DNA of 64,000 bases. It comes from Anaerolineales bacterium. GTDB lineage: Bacteria > Chloroflexota > Anaerolineae > Anaerolineales > UBA11579. Location of the stretch: positions 1 through 64,000 of the forward strand of contig CP075526.1 in the NCBI GenBank assembly GCA_025808555.1. Direction: 5' to 3'. Both the position numbers and the translations under genes were made by a program. Positions 6,628 to 14,655 of this stretch are shown piece after piece; within the stretch, counting starts at the first letter, position 1, and the number at the start of each line of letters is the position of its first letter. Below the pieces are notes generated by a model. It did not search any database. It was not told where the DNA came from and saw only the letters and a program-made list of their open reading frames with translations.

Positions 6628-6981
6628 ATGAAATCAATTGCAAAAATTGCATCGTGGATCCTGATCTTCTTTGGCGTGCTCTTCATCTGGGCCGCGTTTG
6701 GCACCCAGACGAGCTGGGGCAACCTGGCCACCGGCCTGATCACCGTCGGCCTGGGCTTTGGCCTAATGTGGTACGCCAACCAAAAGCTGGCCGCCCCCGG
6801 CGAGCAAAAGGTCACCTACAACGTGGACCTGACCGGCGATGTGAAGCTGGAGAAGTTTCTGTGCCAGCAGTGCGGCGGCGCCCTGAGCGACAAGAATGTG
6901 GCTCTGGTGGGCGGCGCGCTCAACGTCACCTGCCCCTACTGCGGTGCGGTCTACCAGATCGAAGAAGCCCCCAAGTGGTAA
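6628..6981 (+). CDS. Small membrane protein with a cytoplasmic zinc ribbon
   Basis: A 117-residue protein I cannot assign to a named family. Two membrane helices (about residues 5-23 and 32-50) are followed by a hydrophilic domain with two Cys pairs, CQQC and CPYC, spaced as in a rubredoxin-like zinc ribbon. CAGGAG precedes the ATG. It is the first gene after a promoter and terminator boundary and lies 58 bp before the DUF2207-type gene, so it probably belongs to that transcription unit. The Cys pairs most simply bind structural zinc, but a redox role next to a Cys-tailed protein is conceivable. Confidence 0.72.
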   Translation: MKSIAKIASWILIFFGVLFIWAAFGTQTSWGNLATGLITVGLGFGLMWYANQKLAAPGEQKVTYNVDLTGDVKLEKFLCQQCGGALSDKNVALVGGALNVTCPYCGAVYQIEEAPKW

Positions 6982-7039
6982 CCAGCCAACAGTTAACAGC
7001 TCACAGACGACAGCAAAGCTAGTTGCCAGGAGCTAACCA

Positions 7040-8728
7040 ATGAAACTCCGCCATCGCATTCTCTCCATTGCTCTGTTGTTGCTCATCACGCTGGTTCCGC
7101 TCAGCGTGGCCTATGCGCAGACCTATGCCTTCCAGGTGCCAACCCAGCGCGTAGATGTGTACTGGGAGCCCAACGGCACGCTGAGCGTCACCTACGAGAT
7201 CACCTTTCGCAATGAGAGCTACGCAGACCCGATCGATTATGTAGACGTAGGCCTGCCCAACAACAGCTACTCGGTCTCCAACGTCAGCGCATCCATTGAC
7301 GGCCGCCCCATCTCGCACATTGCCTATTCGCCCTACATTGACAGCGGCGTGGAGCTGGGCCTGGGGGCATATGCGATCCAACCCGGGCAAAGCGGCACGG
7401 TGCGCATGACCGCTACCAACGTGAGCAATGTGCTGTACGAGGACAACGAAGACAGCAGCTATGCCAGCGCGCTGTTCATGCCGAACTATTTCGACTCTGA
7501 TTTCGTGAACGGCAGCAGCGACATCACGGTAGTGTTCCACCTGCCGCCGGGCGTGCAGCCCAGTGAGCCGCGCTGGCACACGGCCGGGCATCCCGGCTTC
7601 CCTGACACGCCAGTGACCGGCGTAGACAACACTGGCCGCATCACCTACACCTGGCGCAACACCAACGCCAGCGCCGGGCGGGATTATTTATTTGGCGCCT
7701 CGTTCCCCGCCCGCTCCGTACGCGAGGGCAGCGTGACCGTGCCCACTTTCTGGCAGCGCTACGGCATTGACCCTGACGTGGTCATCGGCCTGATGGTGTG
7801 CTTGTGTTTTGCTGGCTTCTTCACCTTTATTGTGGTGATTGCAGTGCGGGCCGAGCGCAGCCGCAAGCTGAAGTATTTGCCTCCCAAGATCTCGGTCGAA
7901 GGGCACGGCATCAAACGCGGCCTGACCGCTCCGGAGGCCGCCATCCTGCTGGAACAGCCGATGGACAAGATCCTCTCGATGATCATGTTCTCGGTGGTCA
8001 AAAAGGGCGCAGCCGAAGTTGTGACCCGCGACCCACTCGATGTGGCGCGTGTCACCAAACAGCCGACCGGCTTGAAGGAATACGAGAACGACTTCCTGAA
8101 CGCGTTCGCCGAGAGCGACAAAGCCAAGCGCCGCCGTGAGCTGCAGCAGATGATGGTGCGCATGGTGCGCGGCGTGGCCAACAAGATGCGCGGCTTCAGC
8201 AAGCGCGAAACGGTTGAGTTCTACAAAAAGATCACCGCCGACGCCTGGGCCGAAGTGGAAGCCGCCGATACGCCCAAGGTCAAGAGCGAAGCGTTCGACG
8301 AGAACCTGGAATGGACCATGCTGGACCCAAACTACGACCGCCGCACGCGGGATGTGTTCTCGGATGGGCCGGTGTACCTGCCGCGCTGGTATGGCGGCTA
8401 CAACCCGGCCTACAACACGGCGGGCAAGACCTCATCCGCCCCCAGCGTGGGCCGCAGCAGCGGCAGCCCCACGCGCAGCACCGGCAGCCCCTCGCTGCCC
8501 ACCCTGCCCGGCGGCGACTTTGCCGCCTCGGTAGTGGGCGGGGTGCAGAGCTTTGCCAGCAGCGTCGTGGGCAACCTGTCTGACTTTACCGGCGGCGTGA
8601 CCAAGGTGACCAACCCGCCGCCCCCACCCTCCACCAGCAGCGGCGGTGGCGGCTTCAGCGGCGGCGGTTCATCATGTGCGTGTGCGTGCGCAGGCTGTGC
8701 CTGCGCCTGCGCCGGAGGAGGCCGCTAA
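7040..8728 (+). CDS. DUF2207-type membrane protein with a six-cysteine C-terminal tail
   Basis: A 562-residue protein. A signal peptide (about 1-27, ending AYA-QTY) is followed by an extracellular beta domain of DUF2207 type (about 29-225), one membrane helix (about 244-268), a cytoplasmic domain with VEGHGIKRGLTAPEAAILL, and a low-complexity Ser/Gly/Thr linker from about 450. The end is SSCACACAGCACACAGGGR, with Cys at 546, 548, 550, 553, 555 and 557. DUF2207 proteins often end in plain Gly/Ser tails, so the paired CACACA blocks are unusual. Topology puts the tail in the cytoplasm. The stop overlaps the next start (TAATG). I infer that the tail is a substrate for modification; an unmodified metal-binding tail is the alternative. 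Confidence 0.82.
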   Translation: MKLRHRILSIALLLLITLVPLSVAYAQTYAFQVPTQRVDVYWEPNGTLSVTYEITFRNESYADPIDYVDVGLPNNSYSVSNVSASIDGRPISHIAYSPYIDSGVELGLGAYAIQPGQSGTVRMTATNVSNVLYEDNEDSSYASALFMPNYFDSDFVNGSSDITVVFHLPPGVQPSEPRWHTAGHPGFPDTPVTGVDNTGRITYTWRNTNASAGRDYLFGASFPARSVREGSVTVPTFWQRYGIDPDVVIGLMVCLCFAGFFTFIVVIAVRAERSRKLKYLPPKISVEGHGIKRGLTAPEAAILLEQPMDKILSMIMFSVVKKGAAEVVTRDPLDVARVTKQPTGLKEYENDFLNAFAESDKAKRRRELQQMMVRMVRGVANKMRGFSKRETVEFYKKITADAWAEVEAADTPKVKSEAFDENLEWTMLDPNYDRRTRDVFSDGPVYLPRWYGGYNPAYNTAGKTSSAPSVGRSSGSPTRSTGSPSLPTLPGGDFAASVVGGVQSFASSVVGNLSDFTGGVTKVTNPPPPPSTSSGGGGFSGGGSSCACACAGCACACAGGGR

Positions 8729-9894
8729 TGGGCTTTCTGGACAAACTACGCGGCGGCGAAAAGGCTCAGCCGTTGGAGCCGGGCCTGTTCTCGTACACCT
8801 CGCCGCCCAGCCACCCAAACCACTATCGCCTGCACCTGCGGGTTGAGCCCGGCGGCGAAGGCCTGCTGGTGATCAACGCCAGCACGGTGCTGCACCTCAA
8901 CCAGACCGCCACGGAAATGGCTTGGCACTTCATCCGCCTGACGCCGCCGGAACAAGTGGCCGAGCAGATCGCCAAGCGTTACAGCACCGACAAGAAGCAT
9001 GCGGCTGACGATTACGCCGAGTTCGCCAAGACGGTGCAGACCCTGATCGAAACGCCGGACCTTGACCCGGTCACCTATCTGGACGTAGACCGCGCCACGC
9101 CTTACGAAGACTTGAGCGCGCCGTACCGCCTGGATATTGCCCTGACCTATCGCCTGCCGGAGGGCGCCCCCACCGATGCAGCGCCCAGCAAGCGGGTGGA
9201 GCGCGAGCTGAGCACCGCAGAGTGGAAGCAAGTGATCGACAAGGCCTACGAAGCCGGCATCCCGCACATCACCTTCACCGGCGGCGAGCCGACCCTGCGC
9301 GAGGACCTGGCCGAGCTGCTGGCGCACGCCGAGACGCGCGGGCTGGTGACCGGCCTGGTGACCGATGGCCACAAGCTCACCGACACACGCTACCTGAAGA
9401 CCCTGCTGGACGCCGGGCTGGACCATGCCATGATCGTACTGCAACCCAGCGGCACGCAGACCTGGGACTCGTTGGCTAGCTTTGCCTACTGGCGGGAAGT
9501 GCTGAACGACGACATCTTCATCGCCGCCCATCTAACACTGACCAAGGACAATGCGGCCCAGGCCAATGGGCTTATCGACAAGCTGTCTGGCAGCGGCATC
9601 CGCGCCCTTTCGCTGAGCGAAGCGGACAGCTCGCTCAGCGAGGCGCTACAGGCCGCCCGCGACCATGCGGCGGCGCTGAACCTGCCGCTGGTGTGGGACC
9701 TGCCGGTCCCATATTCGGCGCTCAATCCGGTCAGCCTGGAGCTAGCGGCTGCGCACGGCCGGGAGTTGCCCCAAGGGGCAGGCAAGGCCTGGCTGTACGT
9801 GGAGCCAGACGGCGATGTGCTGCCGGGCCAGGGCACGAACAAGGTGTTGGGTAATTTTGTACGCGATGGTTGGGATGTGATCTGGGGGAAGTAG
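8728..9894 (+). CDS. Cysteine-free radical-SAM-like protein with PqqD-like N-terminus
   Basis: A 388-residue protein clearly related to the intact radical SAM enzyme encoded at 12238-13857. Both have an N-terminal PqqD-like region (LHLRVEPGGEG, VLHLNQTATEMAW), then PY-x-x-DIALTY, TFTGGEPTLREDL, and near the end EPDGDVLPGQG. Where the intact enzyme has CNNECPHC this protein reads RLPEGAPTDAA, and it contains no cysteine at all, so it cannot hold a [4Fe-4S] cluster by the usual motif. It also stops where the SPASM domain would begin. GGAGGAGG precedes the ATG inside the Cys-tail gene. A substrate-binding or regulatory partner of the intact enzyme is the likely role; a decaying duplicate is possible, although the frame is undamaged. 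Confidence 0.8.
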   Translation: MGFLDKLRGGEKAQPLEPGLFSYTSPPSHPNHYRLHLRVEPGGEGLLVINASTVLHLNQTATEMAWHFIRLTPPEQVAEQIAKRYSTDKKHAADDYAEFAKTVQTLIETPDLDPVTYLDVDRATPYEDLSAPYRLDIALTYRLPEGAPTDAAPSKRVERELSTAEWKQVIDKAYEAGIPHITFTGGEPTLREDLAELLAHAETRGLVTGLVTDGHKLTDTRYLKTLLDAGLDHAMIVLQPSGTQTWDSLASFAYWREVLNDDIFIAAHLTLTKDNAAQANGLIDKLSGSGIRALSLSEADSSLSEALQAARDHAAALNLPLVWDLPVPYSALNPVSLELAAAHGRELPQGAGKAWLYVEPDGDVLPGQGTNKVLGNFVRDGWDVIWGK

Positions 9895-9944
9895 ATCACA
9901 AAGAAAACTGAAAAATATCTGTTGCTACAACAGCAGTTCAATAA

Positions 9945-9968
9945 GTCGCCTTGTGGCGGTTTTCTTAT
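9945..9968 (+). terminator. Weak intrinsic terminator candidate
   Basis: A 4-bp stem CGCC-TTGT-GGCG (9947-9958) is followed by GTTTTCTTA. The stem is short, so this is tentative. Confidence 0.35.
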
Positions 9969-10041
9969 CCTCGCCATATATCGTCATCTCGATCATTTAG
10001 CAGCGGGGCATATACAGTTCATGTAAATAGTGAGAGCTCTT

Positions 10042-10548
10042 GTGAATTGGAAAAATAAAAGCCTCGTATTTTTTGTTGTTATGGCCTTAATTTCCTGTTC
10101 GGGAAGTAGAGTAACGCGTGCTAACCCAACAGAACTTGCTTTGACTGCGGAGTATTCTCTAGCGGCAAGGGAATTAATCGAAACCCATGAAGAAAGCAAG
10201 CTGGATTCCTTGTCTTTTGCTGGTCCAGACCGATTAGTAATCCTTAAAGCACAGGTAGAGGACTTGATAGTGATAGAGGCTACAGCGGAGAAGCTAAGGG
10301 TAATTGCTTGTGTTAAAAGCACCTTGGTTCAACTAGATAGTGCTAACGAGCCGATAACCGACCCTTGGACTCGCGAATTCCGCGGAGTGTACATTTTTGT
10401 GCCTGAAAATGACCGATGGAGGCTAGCGAATTTTCTAGATACCACTGACCCTGAGCAAACATATCAGGATTGGGATTCTCTGCCGGAGGATTTAAAGAGC
10501 TTAAGTGGACCAATAGAGGATTTTGCTTTTAAGCAATGTGTGCCATGA
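10042..10548 (+). CDS. Putative lipoprotein of unknown function
   Basis: A 168-residue protein with a basic start, a hydrophobic stretch (LVFFVVMAL) and a lipobox-like ISC, with the candidate lipidated Cys at residue 19. I choose the GTG at 10042 because TGAGAG sits five bases upstream; a GTG at 10030 is also possible. The rest is acidic and shows no family I recognise. Base composition is clearly more AT-rich than its neighbours, which suggests later acquisition. It lies alone between two converging parts of the radical SAM locus, so a link to that system is not implied. Confidence 0.6.
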   Translation: MNWKNKSLVFFVVMALISCSGSRVTRANPTELALTAEYSLAARELIETHEESKLDSLSFAGPDRLVILKAQVEDLIVIEATAEKLRVIACVKSTLVQLDSANEPITDPWTREFRGVYIFVPENDRWRLANFLDTTDPEQTYQDWDSLPEDLKSLSGPIEDFAFKQCVP

Positions 10549-10654
10549 AAAAAGCTTCGAAGAAGCACTAGCCGGGCAGATCAAAAAGGGCAAGCCAGCG
10601 AAAACTCTGATTCTCGAATTAGCTGAGCTCGGCGTACTTGACATCTTTATATTA

Positions 10655-10705
10655 GATTGCTTCGTCCGCACTGCTACGCAGTGCAGTCCTCGCAATGACG
10701 GGGAA
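10655..10705. repeat. Hairpin repeat, GATTGCTTCG...GCAATGACGG family, copy 1
   Basis: An internal stem GCACTGC-TAC-GCAGTGC (10668-10684) lies within a unit that recurs at 28351-28398, where the stem reads GCGCTGC-TAC-GCAGCGC. The matched change on both arms indicates that the pairing is conserved. Confidence 0.75.
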
Positions 10706-11707
10706 TCACCCATAAAACGTAGTCCTGCGGATATCGCTCAGCAGCGCGGCTGTGACCGCGTCGGCATCATCGCCGAGGTCTAGCTTGACGTCGCGCTCGT
10801 CTACGATGCCGTCCAGCTCGGCGTAGACGGCTTGTACCCATTGGGCGAAGGTTCGCGGACCTAAGGCGACCGGCTGCTTGCGCAGCCATTGGGGCACGTA
10901 GGAGTAATCAGGCTGGTCGAGGACGCTGACGAAATCAGCGCCTAGCAGCACCCAGCCCAGATTGCGGTTGAAGATGCGCTCGCGGTCAAAGGTCAGCTTG
11001 CCGTCGCTGCGGGCTTCCTTCGGGGCACGGTCAATGATGAGGTCGTAGTAGGTGCGGGTTTCATCCAAGCTGTAGCCCCCCGCCCGCCCGGCCACATAGC
11101 GCACCAGCGGCTGCACCGCCACGCCTAGGTCGAGCTGGCAGACCGGCACGCCGGGATGGCTCTCGATAATTTCTAAGAACGGCTCTTCAAACTTGTGCAG
11201 GGAGGCGTTGATGGCCTGAGCGGCCAGGCGGCGGCGTTCGCCGCGCTCCTGGGCGGTGAGCTGCAGCCCGTGGGTGCAGAAGGCTTCGTCCACTTCGACG
11301 GTGAACGGCTCGCCGTGGGTCTGGCGCAGAACGCCCTTTTTCAAAAGCTCGAACAGCAGCAAGGCCAGGGTGATATTGATCGGCCGGCCGAGCAGCACGG
11401 CTGCCTCGGGCGGCGTGAGGCCGCGCTTCACGCCGCCGCCCTCGATGCGGGCTACGGCGGGCAGATAGCTGGCTGCCTGCGCCCGACGCCATGCGGCCCA
11501 GGCCAGTGCGGCGAGTAGCGGAATGAAGGCCAGCGGCAGCGCGGCGGGCACGGCCCAGAATAGCGCCAGGAGCCCGCCTCCCAGGGCGGCGAAGGGCAGC
11601 TTGCCGTGGCCACGGGCCAGCTGCAAGAACAATAGCCACAGCAACGCCGTGAACACGGCGGCTATGGCTATGCGCAGGATGGCGTTAGCTTCGAAGGCGG
11701 CAAGCAT
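10706..11707 (-). CDS. Membrane protein related to the cytoplasmic half of the DUF2207-type protein
   Basis: A 333-residue protein starting with about three membrane helices (residues 8-30, 38-60 and 62-72), then a soluble domain. Its IEGGGVKRGLTPPEAAVLL and LLFELLKKGVL parallel VEGHGIKRGLTAPEAAILL and MFSVVKKGAAEV of the protein at 7040-8728, so the two share this cytoplasmic domain. It has neither the extracellular beta domain nor a Cys tail. The ATG overlaps the stop of the transposase gene (TAATG). With the radical SAM gene it forms a minus-strand unit facing the plus-strand one, which suggests both units act in one system. Confidence 0.72.
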   Translation of the reverse strand: MLAAFEANAILRIAIAAVFTALLWLLFLQLARGHGKLPFAALGGGLLALFWAVPAALPLAFIPLLAALAWAAWRRAQAASYLPAVARIEGGGVKRGLTPPEAAVLLGRPINITLALLLFELLKKGVLRQTHGEPFTVEVDEAFCTHGLQLTAQERGERRRLAAQAINASLHKFEEPFLEIIESHPGVPVCQLDLGVAVQPLVRYVAGRAGGYSLDETRTYYDLIIDRAPKEARSDGKLTFDRERIFNRNLGWVLLGADFVSVLDQPDYSYVPQWLRKQPVALGPRTFAQWVQAVYAELDGIVDERDVKLDLGDDADAVTAALLSDIRRTTFYG

Positions 11708-12231
11708 TATTGCCCTGCCTCCTGGCTCAGCAGCAACGGATTGTAGAGGATGTATTCGCGGAACTTATTGAGTTCGGATTCATCACGAATAATGCGATCA
11801 AAGTAGTTTCGCTGCCAAACACTACGGCCAATTCGCTGACTGACCTTGGATTTGAATCCAGCGATGATGGATCCGAGTGAGTTAGGTTCGCGACGAAGAC
11901 GAGAGTTATGTAGGGGCGCACCGCGGTGCGCCCCTAACGAATTCCGATTTGGGGAACCGTCGCTTGCTAAAGGTTTCCCCTGGAGAAGCAAAATTGCGTG
12001 AAAGTGGTCTGGCATTACAACAAATTCATCCAAAGAAACATCGCTGCGCAAGTCAGATGTCTTTCTCCATTCTTCAACCACGATTTGGCCAGCCTCATGC
12101 AACACAATCTGCTCACCAACCAGTCTTCCAAAAATGGCTTCACGATTCTTCGAAACCAAGGTAACAAAATAAGCTCCTGGCAACGAATAATCGTAACCCT
12201 GGAGCCTATTGGAATCTCTGCGCAGTTTCAA
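11707..12231 (-). CDS. REP-associated tyrosine transposase (RAYT), IS200/IS605-like Y1 family
   Basis: A 174-residue single-stranded-DNA transposase of the Y1/HUH class. Diagnostic features are the opening RLQGYDYSLPGAYFVTL, the metal-binding HFH in VMPDHFHAILLL, GSIIAGFKSKVSQ, and VWQRNYFDRIIRDESELNKFREYI, which includes the expected catalytic Tyr. RAYTs are domesticated transposases thought to move or process REP hairpins. The start codon appears to be TTG. It lies just after the radical SAM stop and its own stop overlaps the next start, so it is embedded in that operon. A perfect 26-bp REP-like palindrome lies inside its coding sequence at 11911-11936. Confidence 0.93.
   Translation of the reverse strand: MKLRRDSNRLQGYDYSLPGAYFVTLVSKNREAIFGRLVGEQIVLHEAGQIVVEEWRKTSDLRSDVSLDEFVVMPDHFHAILLLQGKPLASDGSPNRNSLGAHRGAPLHNSRLRREPNSLGSIIAGFKSKVSQRIGRSVWQRNYFDRIIRDESELNKFREYILYNPLLLSQEAGQ
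11911..11936. repeat. Perfect 26-bp REP-like palindrome inside the RAYT gene
   Basis: TAGGGGCGCACCG is followed directly by its reverse complement. It is translated in frame (around GAHRGAPLHN). A sister palindrome with the same TAGGGGCGCA arm lies at 63491-63514. Confidence 0.85.
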
Positions 12232-12237
12232 AGCAAA

Positions 12238-13857
12238 CTATTGAATCTCGTCGAGGGAGATCATGTCAAAGTTGCCGCTGGCACGCGTCTTGGTGCGCGT
12301 GGTACTGGGCGACGGCGTGAAGCCGCCGGCGGGAATGTACCCGGCGGTATGAGAGTGCCCCTTGACCTGGTGGGCCGAACTGCCAGTGCCACAGCTGCCA
12401 CTGCAGCCCGAGCAACCGCCGCCGCTGCCCTCGGCGACACGCACACCGTCACGCGCTTCGCGCTCGATGCGGCAGCCGCCGCCGCATAGCGGCAAGTCAG
12501 GACAGGTCCAGCATTTTTCGGGCAGGCCATAGCCCTTGGGATCGAGCTCGCGGTAGCGGAAGCTGCGGAACAGCTCACCGTCCCAGATCTGCTCCCACGG
12601 GTCATGCAGGATGTTACCAGCGGAAACGTAGTACGACTGGCACGGCAGCACGTTGCCGTTGGGCTCAATGCACAGCGAGTATTCGCCGGCGTTGCAGCGC
12701 TTGGCGCCGATCTCAAGCTCCACCGGCGACATGCGGCAGTACTCGGTGGGCGTGTACCACAGGAAGCGCATGCCCAGCTCGCGGGCCTTGTCTCGCACGC
12801 GCACCAGCAGGGCCGGCATCTCTTTTTCGTCAATGGCGTTGGAGTGGGCAAAACCACCACCGGAGTAGATCAGCCCGTTCATGGCAAAGGTGCGGATACC
12901 GAGCGAGTACAAGAACTCGATGATCTCTTCGACGTGGCCCATGTTGGCGCGCATCAGGGTGGTGTTGGTGATCACATGGACACGGCTGGCGATAGCATTC
13001 TCGATGCCTTGCACGGTCTGGTGCCAGGCCTTAGCGCCCATCATGGCGTTGTGCACATCCGGGCGGTTGGAGTCGAGCGTGAACTGCACATGGTTCAGGC
13101 CGGCTTCGGCCAGCTGCTGCATGTACTCGTTGTGAGCGATGTGTCGGCCGTTGGTATTGAGGCCGACAACCATGCCAAGCTGGTCGGCATAGCGGATGAC
13201 CTGCGGCAGGTCCGGGTGCAGGGTCGCCTCGCCGCCGGTGAGGATGAGGTGCGGCACGCCCAGCTCAGCCAGGCGGTCGAGCACGGCGTACCACTCCTGC
13301 AAGTGCAGCGAGGGCATGTTGAGGCGATCAGCCTCGTTGTAGCAGTGTGGGCACTCGTTGTTGCAGCCGTAGGTGAGTGCAATGTCTACTTTATAGGGCG
13401 CGTTGACTTCCACGCTGAACATCGGCGACATCTCGAGGGTATCGCTCAGTTCGCAGGTCGGGCAGTCGCCGTCCGGGTGGGCGAAGCCCTCGACCATGTC
13501 GTAGATCTGGGTCAGCTCGCGCTCGATCTGGGCCAGCGGCGCCTCAGGGTGCCAGCCGCCAATACGGGCACGAGCCTGCGGCCGCGGCACGCCGTCTAGG
13601 GCCATCTTGGCCATCAGGGCAGCAGTGTGGTTGAGGTGGACTACATCGGTCACGTCCACAAACATGACGCCGTTGCCGCTGGGCTCGATGCGCAGATGAA
13701 TACGCATGCTGCGCCCGTTGGCCATGGCGATGTCGTAGGCGTGCAAACCGATGCGGGGTTTTTCGGGCTGGGAAAAGGCGGCCATGAAGTTGGCCGTATC
13801 GCTGCGAAGTCCCTGCCAGAGCTTTTTGACCGAAGCGGAACGTATATCGAGCGCCAT
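12238..13857 (-). CDS. Radical SAM/SPASM enzyme with PqqD-like N-terminus and Cys/Gly-rich tail
   Basis: A 539-residue putative peptide-modifying enzyme. Residues about 50-125 resemble PqqD, the RiPP recognition element. The radical SAM core starts at PYKVDIALTY with CxxxCxxC at Cys165, Cys169 and Cys172 and LTGGEATL at about 207. A SPASM-type region supplies Cys388, 396, 406, 449, 452, 458 and 462 for auxiliary clusters. Beyond it is an extra tail with GSGGGCSGCSGSCGTGSS (Cys482, 485, 489) and a Ser/Thr-rich end. SPASM enzymes typically form thioether or C-C crosslinks on ribosomal peptides or modify a partner protein. No small precursor gene is visible; the Cys tail of the protein at 7040-8728 is the best nearby substrate. 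A TATACT box seven bases upstream suggests a leaderless mRNA. Confidence 0.9.
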   Translation of the reverse strand: MALDIRSASVKKLWQGLRSDTANFMAAFSQPEKPRIGLHAYDIAMANGRSMRIHLRIEPSGNGVMFVDVTDVVHLNHTAALMAKMALDGVPRPQARARIGGWHPEAPLAQIERELTQIYDMVEGFAHPDGDCPTCELSDTLEMSPMFSVEVNAPYKVDIALTYGCNNECPHCYNEADRLNMPSLHLQEWYAVLDRLAELGVPHLILTGGEATLHPDLPQVIRYADQLGMVVGLNTNGRHIAHNEYMQQLAEAGLNHVQFTLDSNRPDVHNAMMGAKAWHQTVQGIENAIASRVHVITNTTLMRANMGHVEEIIEFLYSLGIRTFAMNGLIYSGGGFAHSNAIDEKEMPALLVRVRDKARELGMRFLWYTPTEYCRMSPVELEIGAKRCNAGEYSLCIEPNGNVLPCQSYYVSAGNILHDPWEQIWDGELFRSFRYRELDPKGYGLPEKCWTCPDLPLCGGGCRIEREARDGVRVAEGSGGGCSGCSGSCGTGSSAHQVKGHSHTAGYIPAGGFTPSPSTTRTKTRASGNFDMISLDEIQ

Positions 13858-13899: not shown

Positions 13900-14655
13900 T
13901 TGGTTATCCCTATGCTTGAGCCCACGGCAGCCCACCAACGCTATATGCAGCAAGCCGCCTGGACTGCGCCGGCGCGGCGTCATCTGTTGGCGGCGGCCGG
14001 GCTGCCCAATGCCCGCGGCGTGCTGGAAGTGGGCTGTGGCACCGGCGCAGTCCTAGGCACGATCACTGCGCCTGCAGGCGCAGTGATCGTGGGCCTGGAT
14101 ATTGACCGTGCCGCCCTGCCGCTGGCGCGGCAGCACGCGCCAGATGCAGCGCTGACGGCGGGGGACGCGCACGCACTGCCCTACCCTGACGCTTGCTTTG
14201 ACATTGCCTTCTGCCACTTTGTGCTGCTGTGGGTGGCCGAGCCTGCCAAAACGCTGGCCGAGATGCGCCGCGTGGTGCGCCCCGGCGGCGCGGTGCTGGT
14301 GCTGGCCGAGCCGGACTATACCCAGCGTATCGACGAGCCAGCCGAGCTGGCCGCGCTGGGCCAGGCACAGACCGAGGCGTTGAGCGCCCGCGGGACAGAC
14401 CCTGCGGTTGGCGGCCGCCTGCCGGCGCTGTTTGCTGCGGCCGGGCTGCAGGTGGTGGACGCCGGGCCGCTGCAAACCAGCTGCCCCAGCGCCAGCACCG
14501 CCGCCGAGGAAGCCAGCATGCTGCGCGCCGACCTGAGCGGACATGTGCCCGCCGAGCAGCTGGAGCGCTGGCTGGCACAGGATGCGGCGGCCTGGGCAGC
14601 GGGCACCCGCAAACTGCAAGTGCCTACATACTACGCGCTGGGGCGGGTCAGCTAG
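13900..14655 (+). CDS. Class I SAM-dependent methyltransferase
   Basis: A 251-residue Rossmann-fold methyltransferase. Motif I is VLEVGCGTGAVLG, followed by VGLDIDRAALPLAR, DAHALPYPDACFDIAFC and the post-core MRRVVRPGGAVLVLAEP, as in the UbiE/COQ5-like Methyltransf_11 family. The substrate is unknown. The ATG at 13900 is chosen, but ATG 13912 (MLEPTAAHQRY) is equally plausible and neither has a ribosome site. It is divergent from the radical SAM gene with only 42 bp between, so the two share an upstream region. Confidence 0.85.
   Translation: MVIPMLEPTAAHQRYMQQAAWTAPARRHLLAAAGLPNARGVLEVGCGTGAVLGTITAPAGAVIVGLDIDRAALPLARQHAPDAALTAGDAHALPYPDACFDIAFCHFVLLWVAEPAKTLAEMRRVVRPGGAVLVLAEPDYTQRIDEPAELAALGQAQTEALSARGTDPAVGGRLPALFAAAGLQVVDAGPLQTSCPSASTAAEEASMLRADLSGHVPAEQLERWLAQDAAAWAAGTRKLQVPTYYALGRVS

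What the first reader, a model, noticed from the sequence alone, without database searches (positions are those of the whole stretch)
6628..13857. Possible new RiPP-like system: radical SAM/PqqD enzyme, a cysteine-free paralogue and a membrane protein with a CACACA tail
Seen: two facing gene sets share domains. Both the DUF2207-type protein and its short paralogue carry the KRGLTxPEAA domain, and both radical-SAM-like proteins carry a PqqD-like N-terminus. One membrane protein ends in six cysteines. Known: PqqD-like domains are RiPP recognition elements, and SPASM enzymes modify Cys-containing peptides. Inference: the enzyme pair modifies the cytoplasmic tail of the membrane protein, making a modified anchor rather than a free peptide. 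I do not recall a described system of this form.
Basis: partly seen in the sequence, partly recalled or inferred. Interest (0 to 1): 0.87.

Follow-up and report, generated by a model that had tools for sequence, protein, structure and literature searches.

The report
Radical-SAM cassette for cysteine-alanine membrane tails
The window holds one copy of a gene set, found in both bacteria and archaea but not found described here, in which a membrane protein ends in an almost unchanging string of alternating cysteines and alanines and is accompanied by a radical enzyme that probably modifies that string chemically and leaves it attached to the protein.

Summary
Window 7040-8728 encodes a one-span membrane protein ending in CACACAGCACACAGGGR. 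A catalytically dead PqqD/radical-SAM protein (8728-9894) and an intact PqqD/radical-SAM/SPASM enzyme (12238-13857, minus strand) accompany it.

The tail is not local. Where readable, all lie on homologues of the same protein. The radical SAM enzyme is in the stretch in 91 and elsewhere in the genome in 22; the other 4 lie near cut or broken contigs. In 247 near-complete genomes of the class, 43 have both genes, 5 only the enzyme, 1 only the tail protein, 198 neither. A zinc-ribbon membrane protein and a methyltransferase usually complete the cassette; no protease or exporter recurs.

A second pairing, a CHSA-repeat tail on a related scaffold, has its own radical SAM clade directly downstream in 14 of 14 testable genomes.

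The chemistry remains untested. The window's copy is a hybrid: type I tail protein, type II enzyme, and a tail-less type II relic (10706-11707).

The parts
6628..6981 (+). ZnR117: membrane-anchored zinc-ribbon protein (one TM, two CXXC knuckles), conserved first gene of the type I cassette
   Evidence: found upstream in 59 of 65 type I/archaeal-type tail loci with enough upstream DNA, missing mainly in Asgard archaea
7040..8728 (+). CysTM (type I): signal peptide, extracytoplasmic beta-sandwich, one TM (about 251-269), cytoplasmic KRGLT winged-helix-like and helical region, Gly-rich linker, Cys-Ala tail
   Evidence: type I clade
8675..8725 (+). The tail CACACAGCACACAGGGR-COOH (residues 546-562); 6-8 Cys in relatives; protein ends directly after Arg
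8728..9894 (+). pseudoSAM: PqqD (RRE) plus degenerate radical-SAM/SPASM homologue without the SAM-cluster cysteines; start overlaps the CysTM stop (TAATG)
12238..13857 (-). Radical SAM/SPASM enzyme of type II clade with N-terminal RRE-like domain; intact CX3CX2C and CX2CX5CX3C
   Evidence: (type II clade, support 100/99)
12241..12456 (-). C-terminal extension of the enzyme (GGGCSGCSGSCGT ... TAGYIPAGGF), conserved in Chloroflexota type II enzymes, absent or reduced in Armatimonadota and Planctomycetota ones; role unknown
10706..11707 (-). shortTM: shortened, tail-less paralogue of CysTM, grouping with type II tail proteins; probable relic or accessory
13900..14655 (+). SAM-dependent methyltransferase (Methyltransf_11) conserved in the cassette from Chloroflexota to Asgard archaea; likely start ATG near 13912

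Best explanation
This is a RiPP-like protein-modification cassette whose substrate is the cytoplasmic C-terminal Cys-Ala tail of a membrane protein. Proposed mechanism: (1) the membrane protein is inserted with its beta-sandwich outside and its KRGLT region and tail inside (predicted); (2) the PqqD-like domain of the radical SAM/SPASM enzyme, helped in Chloroflexota by the dead PqqD/pseudo-SAM partner, docks on the tail protein (inferred); (3) the enzyme makes several crosslinks on the (CA)n stretch, most likely cysteine thioethers of the sactionine kind (inferred from nearest kinship to the sactisynthase SkfB; I give this chemistry about 0.4); (4) the methyltransferase may add a further modification (inferred, weak); (5) the tail is not released, because no protease or exporter is conserved, and it works as a permanent metal- or redox-active site at the inner membrane face next to the zinc-ribbon protein (about 0.3). 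Shown here: conservation, co-occurrence, gene order, intact or degenerate active sites, predicted topology and fold. Not shown: any modification.
For: Found by whole-protein search, independently of the tail, 39 of 61 genomes have the protein, and all intact C-termini but one carry the tail, down to 41% identity; the exception (L063) shares only the ectodomain and has no enzyme nearby. The tail plus enzyme recurs across bacteria and archaea. Presence and absence are correlated: 43/5/1/198 genomes, including species of one genus with both or neither. Two 'enzyme only' cases (L188, L189) lie on contigs that end before the tail protein could be seen, and three are the type III enzyme; the single 'tail only' contig does carry the degenerate partner rSAMx. 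All three SAM-cluster cysteines and the SPASM CX2CX5CX3C are invariant. Nearest solved relatives: SkfB (E 6.8e-29), PqqE, SuiB, and the RRE protein TfuB1 for residues 40-109; best fold match SkfB, then SuiB. No other conserved neighbour gene. A second tail type (CHSA repeats, 11-13 Cys) on a related scaffold has its own PqqD-radical SAM clade directly downstream in 14 of 14 genomes with enough DNA. Replacement in the window's family: type I tail protein kept, enzyme taken from type II.
Against: No chemical data. Tail strings are nearly invariant across domains, unlike RiPP core peptides, and could equally be a cysteine ligand site that needs no modification. The methyltransferase is missing within reach in 7 of 30 loci with 4.5 kb downstream. 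The enzyme is not next to the tail gene in a few loci, mostly archaeal (L102, L108, L130, L151, L179), although it is in the genome.
Confidence: 0.7

Rival explanations
1. The tail is an unmodified metallothionein-like or cluster-binding site; the radical SAM enzyme and methyltransferase build a small cofactor or act on something else that the tail protein binds or senses.
For: CXC repeats are typical metal ligands; the tail is invariant rather than variable; radical SAM relatives such as PqqE, NirJ and AhbD make cofactors and match by profile.
Against: The enzyme has a PqqD/RRE domain, which in known systems binds peptide substrates, and its best structural matches are RiPP maturases; a different tail is paired with a different enzyme clade on a related scaffold, which fits substrate matching better than a shared cofactor.
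Confidence: 0.18
2. The modified tail is cleaved and released as a free RiPP, with the membrane protein as an unusually large leader.
For: RRE plus radical SAM plus methyltransferase is a common RiPP set; the Gly-rich linker before the tail could be a cleavage region.
Against: No protease or exporter is conserved in the neighbourhood; the tail is predicted on the cytoplasmic side; the string hardly varies between phyla; the Arg-COOH end is fixed (33 of 33 hits to a pattern that did not ask for a stop).
Confidence: 0.07
3. The tail cysteines are lipidated or form a thiol relay, and the gene linkage reflects a shared regulon rather than enzyme and substrate.
For: Cysteine-rich juxtamembrane tails can be S-acylated in eukaryotes (general knowledge; no tool result).
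Against: No acyltransferase in the cassette; linkage persists over bacteria and archaea and survives cassette rearrangement.
Confidence: 0.05

Closest known systems
TIGR04222 membrane proteins with MNIO (DUF692) enzymes (PMC12452194)
   Same: Membrane protein with a weakly similar internal domain and a C-terminal Gly- and Cys-rich tail, linked to a RiPP-type enzyme; proposed as a modified protein rather than a free peptide.
   Different: Different enzyme (multinuclear iron, not radical SAM); tail predicted periplasmic there, cytoplasmic here; a third of genomes with TIGR04222 lack MNIO genes, whereas here the link is nearly complete; TIGR04222 matches only 4 of 26 type I proteins, best E 7e-4, far below its cut-off.
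SkfB and other radical SAM/SPASM RiPP maturases (sactisynthases; PMC6231123)
   Same: N-terminal RRE, radical SAM barrel, auxiliary cluster cysteines; SkfB is the best match by profile and by fold.
   Different: Substrate there is a small peptide that is cleaved and exported; here it would be the fixed tail of a membrane protein, with no protease or exporter.
TIGR04347 haloarchaeal pseudo-SAM/SPASM proteins
   Same: Radical-SAM homologues without the SAM cluster, like the window's 8728-9894 (60 bits).
   Different: Well below the family cut-off of 525 bits; different context.
TrsS/DVU_1556 gene set (radical SAM plus methyltransferase plus Cys-rich protein; gene set recalled from memory)
   Same: Nearest NCBIfam model for the methyltransferase (79 bits) and a hit for the enzyme (84 bits).
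   Different: Both below cut-off (155, 490); no tail-bearing membrane protein of this kind is known to me there.
DUF2207 (PF09972) membrane proteins
   Same: Signal peptide, extracellular beta domain, TM, cytoplasmic region, Gly-rich end (layout from memory); type III scaffold gives a weak match (E 0.038).
   Different: No match at E 0.1 for any of 26 type I proteins; Cys tail and enzyme are extra.

Membership tests
Radical SAM/SPASM RiPP systems | Intact CX3CX2C and auxiliary cluster motif in the enzyme | tested here: met
   Invariant in 32 type I and 14 type II enzymes; Pfam Radical_SAM and SPASM in all 32
Radical SAM/SPASM RiPP systems | RiPP recognition element (PqqD-like domain) | tested here: met
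   PqqD in 23 of 32 enzymes, in the window's pseudoSAM; profile match to RRE TfuB1
Radical SAM/SPASM RiPP systems | Genetically linked peptide or protein substrate with conserved modifiable residues | tested here: met
   (linkage and conserved residues; that it is the substrate is inferred)
Radical SAM/SPASM RiPP systems | Small precursor peptide with leader, cleaved by a protease and usually exported | tested here: not met
   Substrate candidate is a 500-700 aa membrane protein; no conserved protease or exporter
Radical SAM/SPASM RiPP systems | Demonstrated post-translational modification | not testable with these tools
   Needs mass spectrometry
Sactipeptides | Cys S to alpha-carbon thioethers made by a SkfB/AlbA-type enzyme | not testable with these tools
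   Kinship only: SkfB best match; below the SkfB equivalog cut-off (79.9 against 300 bits)
TIGR04222 / MNIO tail proteins | Match to TIGR04222 above cut-off | tested here: not met
   15.8 bits against 43; 4 of 26 members match weakly
TIGR04222 / MNIO tail proteins | Linked MNIO enzyme | tested here: inconclusive
   Clustered neighbour ORFs shared by three or more loci show no conserved extra gene, but the neighbours were not scanned with an MNIO model
DUF2207 (PF09972) | Match above gathering score | tested here: not met
   No match at E 0.1 in 26 members; 14.7 bits against 24.4 for type III

The most novel reading that the evidence does not exclude
A widespread class of enzyme-crosslinked protein tails shared by bacteria and archaea: several radical SAM clades, each matched to its own fixed Cys-rich tail, (CA)nGGGR or (CHSA)n, on a common membrane scaffold. 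They would build permanent metal- or redox-active sites at the inner membrane face, making this a protein modification system and not natural-product biosynthesis.
Probability: 0.45. Interest if true: 0.93.

Novelty: new variant of a known kind. Interest (0 to 1): 0.82.

Why it matters
If true, radical SAM/RRE maturation, known for small secreted peptides and cofactors, also builds a fixed part of a membrane protein, and does so in Asgard archaea, Thermoplasmatota, Chloroflexota and about a dozen other bacterial phyla. The near-invariance of the tail over that range implies a conserved cellular function rather than an antibiotic. Testing is simple: one C-terminal peptide with 6-8 cysteines and a known unmodified mass, in culturable hosts (Levilinea, Ornatilinea and Leptolinea are among the hits). 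Two tail types with two enzyme clades give a built-in specificity test. No curated family in Pfam or NCBIfam covers the tail protein, and no paper in the searched library mentions it.

Tried and rejected
Chance or low-complexity artefact: rejected by codon diversity, zero hits of the reversed control pattern in 301 and 79 genomes, and homology of the whole protein. Free peptide RiPP: no protease or exporter conserved. Simple membership in TIGR04222 or DUF2207: rejected by scores. Plasmid-borne spread: the tail protein gave no match in 72,556 plasmids, and the enzyme only general PqqE-type matches. Role for the transposase 11707-12231: present in only a few relatives (L037, L039), not conserved. 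Viral origin: two scans of viral contigs gave one stray hit. Papers: no hit for DUF2207 with radical SAM, for the peptide strings CACACAGGGR or CHSACHSAC, or for CXXX repeat with radical SAM. L252's printed enzyme score is a stale value (192 bases downstream) and was not counted.
Full report
WHAT IS THERE. The window lies in a 2.24 Mb single-contig genome whose relatives point to Chloroflexota, Anaerolineales-like (named organisms). The plus strand carries a 117-aa zinc-ribbon membrane protein (6628-6981), a 562-aa membrane protein (7040-8728) and, starting inside its stop codon, a 388-aa PqqD/pseudo-radical-SAM protein (8728-9894). The minus strand carries a 539-aa radical SAM/SPASM enzyme (12238-13857), a transposase of REP type (11707-12231) and a 333-aa tail-less paralogue of the membrane protein (10706-11707). 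A methyltransferase starts divergently at about 13900-13912. The membrane protein ends in SSCACACAGCACACAGGGR.

IS THE TAIL REAL AND CONSERVED? A whole-protein search of 60 relatives found the protein in 39 of 61 genomes. In the fetched loci every intact C-terminus except one ends in (CA)nG(CA)nGGGR, down to 41% identity. The exception, L063, shares only the ectodomain and has no enzyme nearby. In an alignment of 26 diverse proteins all 17 last columns are invariant. Eighty-three identical CACACAGCACACAGGGR tails have 83 different DNA sequences, so selection acts on the protein.

HOW FAR DOES IT REACH? The 111 with enough coding sequence all match the profile of the membrane protein; the other six are fragments at the edge of a contig or stretch. 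By record title they are 70 Chloroflexota, Asgard archaea (Heimdall-, Hodar-, Hermod-, Sigyn-, Lokiarchaeota), Thermoplasmatota, Armatimonadota, Fermentibacterota, Planctomycetota, Coates-, Edwards-, Zixi-, Myxo-, Acido-, Hydrogenedent-, Aminicenant- and one Actinomycetota record. Tail variants: CACACACAGCACACAGGGR 55, CACACAGCACACAGGGR 15, CACACACACAGCACACAGGGR 13, CACACAGCACACACAGGGR 11, CACACACACACAGGGR 10, others 13. A pattern without the stop codon hit 20 of 301 Chloroflexota and 13 of 79 Asgard genomes; the reversed control pattern hit none. All 33 readable hits to this pattern, including one viral-contig hit, stop directly after the arginine.

DOES IT TRAVEL WITH THE ENZYME? In 91 of the 117 stretches the radical SAM enzyme is present. 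The genomes of the remaining 26 were searched: 22 have a cassette-type enzyme (21 above 500 bits, one in two pieces), and for the other four the tail gene lies on a contig of 3.7-6.5 kb or the enzyme shows as broken or cut pieces. In 247 near-complete genomes of the class, enzyme and tail protein occur together in 43, enzyme alone in 5, tail protein alone in 1, neither in 198 (Fisher p 2.8e-41; genomes are related, so the p-value is only indicative). Of the five, two lie on contigs that stop before the tail protein could be seen (L188, L189) and three are the type III enzyme below; the single reverse case carries the degenerate partner rSAMx. Species of one genus (g19) have both or neither.

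THE CASSETTE. Type I: ZnR - tail protein - radical SAM - (pseudo-SAM, Chloroflexota) - methyltransferase. Type II: ZnR - radical SAM (long) - degenerate radical SAM that keeps SPASM cysteines - tail protein (sometimes two in tandem) - methyltransferase. The zinc ribbon is upstream in 59 of 65 loci tested and the methyltransferase in 23 of 30. Clustering of neighbouring ORFs found no further gene conserved beyond close kin. The window's family is a hybrid: its enzyme sits in the type II clade (100/99), its tail protein in type I, and its short paralogue with type II tail proteins. I infer that the type II enzyme took over the type I tail, and that the type II tail protein then lost its tail.

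A SECOND TAIL. Three 'enzyme only' genomes led to a third arrangement: a scaffold with weak TIGR04222 and DUF2207 similarity ending [54 protein letters not shown], directly followed by its own PqqD-radical SAM clade. The CHSA pattern is in 27 of 247 class genomes, and the enzyme is directly downstream in 14 of 14 genomes with enough DNA. A different tail with a different enzyme on a related scaffold is what a tail-substrate relation predicts.

STRUCTURE AND TOPOLOGY. Hydropathy gives a signal peptide and one TM followed by 4-6 K/R in most type I and archaeal proteins, and more TMs in type II, so the tail is predicted cytoplasmic. AlphaFold2 gives a confident beta-sandwich ectodomain (Foldseek: N-terminal domain of M1 aminopeptidases, ribophorin I), a TM helix, a cytoplasmic helical region and a disordered tail. 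The enzyme model (mean pLDDT 70) matches SkfB first, then SuiB; the sequence profile gives SkfB E 6.8e-29, PqqE, SuiB and, for the N-terminus, the RRE protein TfuB1.

MECHANISM. Shown: linkage, invariance, intact enzyme site, RRE, topology by prediction. Inferred: docking through the RRE, crosslinking of Cys-Ala units, retention of the tail, metal or redox role. The enzyme-substrate relation is the best reading (about 0.75-0.8); thioether chemistry about 0.4; the physiological role about 0.3.

NOVELTY. The nearest published idea is the 2025 proposal that some TIGR04222 membrane proteins are substrates of MNIO enzymes (PMC12452194), with other enzymes, a predicted periplasmic tail and a looser association. 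Radical SAM RiPP maturation is known (SkfB, PMC6231123). The combination here was not found in Pfam, NCBIfam or the searched papers, which hold open-licence papers only. I therefore call it a new variant of a known kind.

Noticed in passing
L191 6512-8227 (-), L192 8102-9859 (-), L197, L239-L253: A related membrane scaffold ends in a nearly invariant 50-residue CHSA-repeat tail with 11-13 cysteines (also histidines), followed directly by a separate clade of PqqD-radical SAM enzyme; 27 of 247 genomes of the class carry the pattern.
   Followed up: partly
window 12241-12456 (-): Type II enzymes of Chloroflexota carry their own Cys/Gly-rich C-terminal extension (GGGCxGCSGSCGT...TAGYIPxGGFxP), absent or reduced in Armatimonadota and Planctomycetota; it could be a metal site or a self-modified segment.
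   Followed up: no
L064 2233-3612, L066 1711-3081, L198 6287-7606: Type II cassettes contain a degenerate radical SAM homologue that lost CX3CX2C but keeps C-terminal SPASM-like cysteines, unlike the pseudo-SAM of type I.
   Followed up: no
L198 7622-11348, L199 7244-10755: Some Chloroflexota genomes carry two tailed membrane proteins in tandem with different tail lengths (CACACAGCACACACAGGGR and CACAGCACACACAGGGR).
   Followed up: no
window 11707-12231 (-): REP-associated tyrosine transposase next to the enzyme gene; also present at the same place in L037 and L039.
   Followed up: no
L206 (IMG/VR contig IMGVR_UViG_3300027858_000515): One contig filed as viral carries a CACACAGGGR tail, probably a misfiled host fragment.
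   Followed up: no
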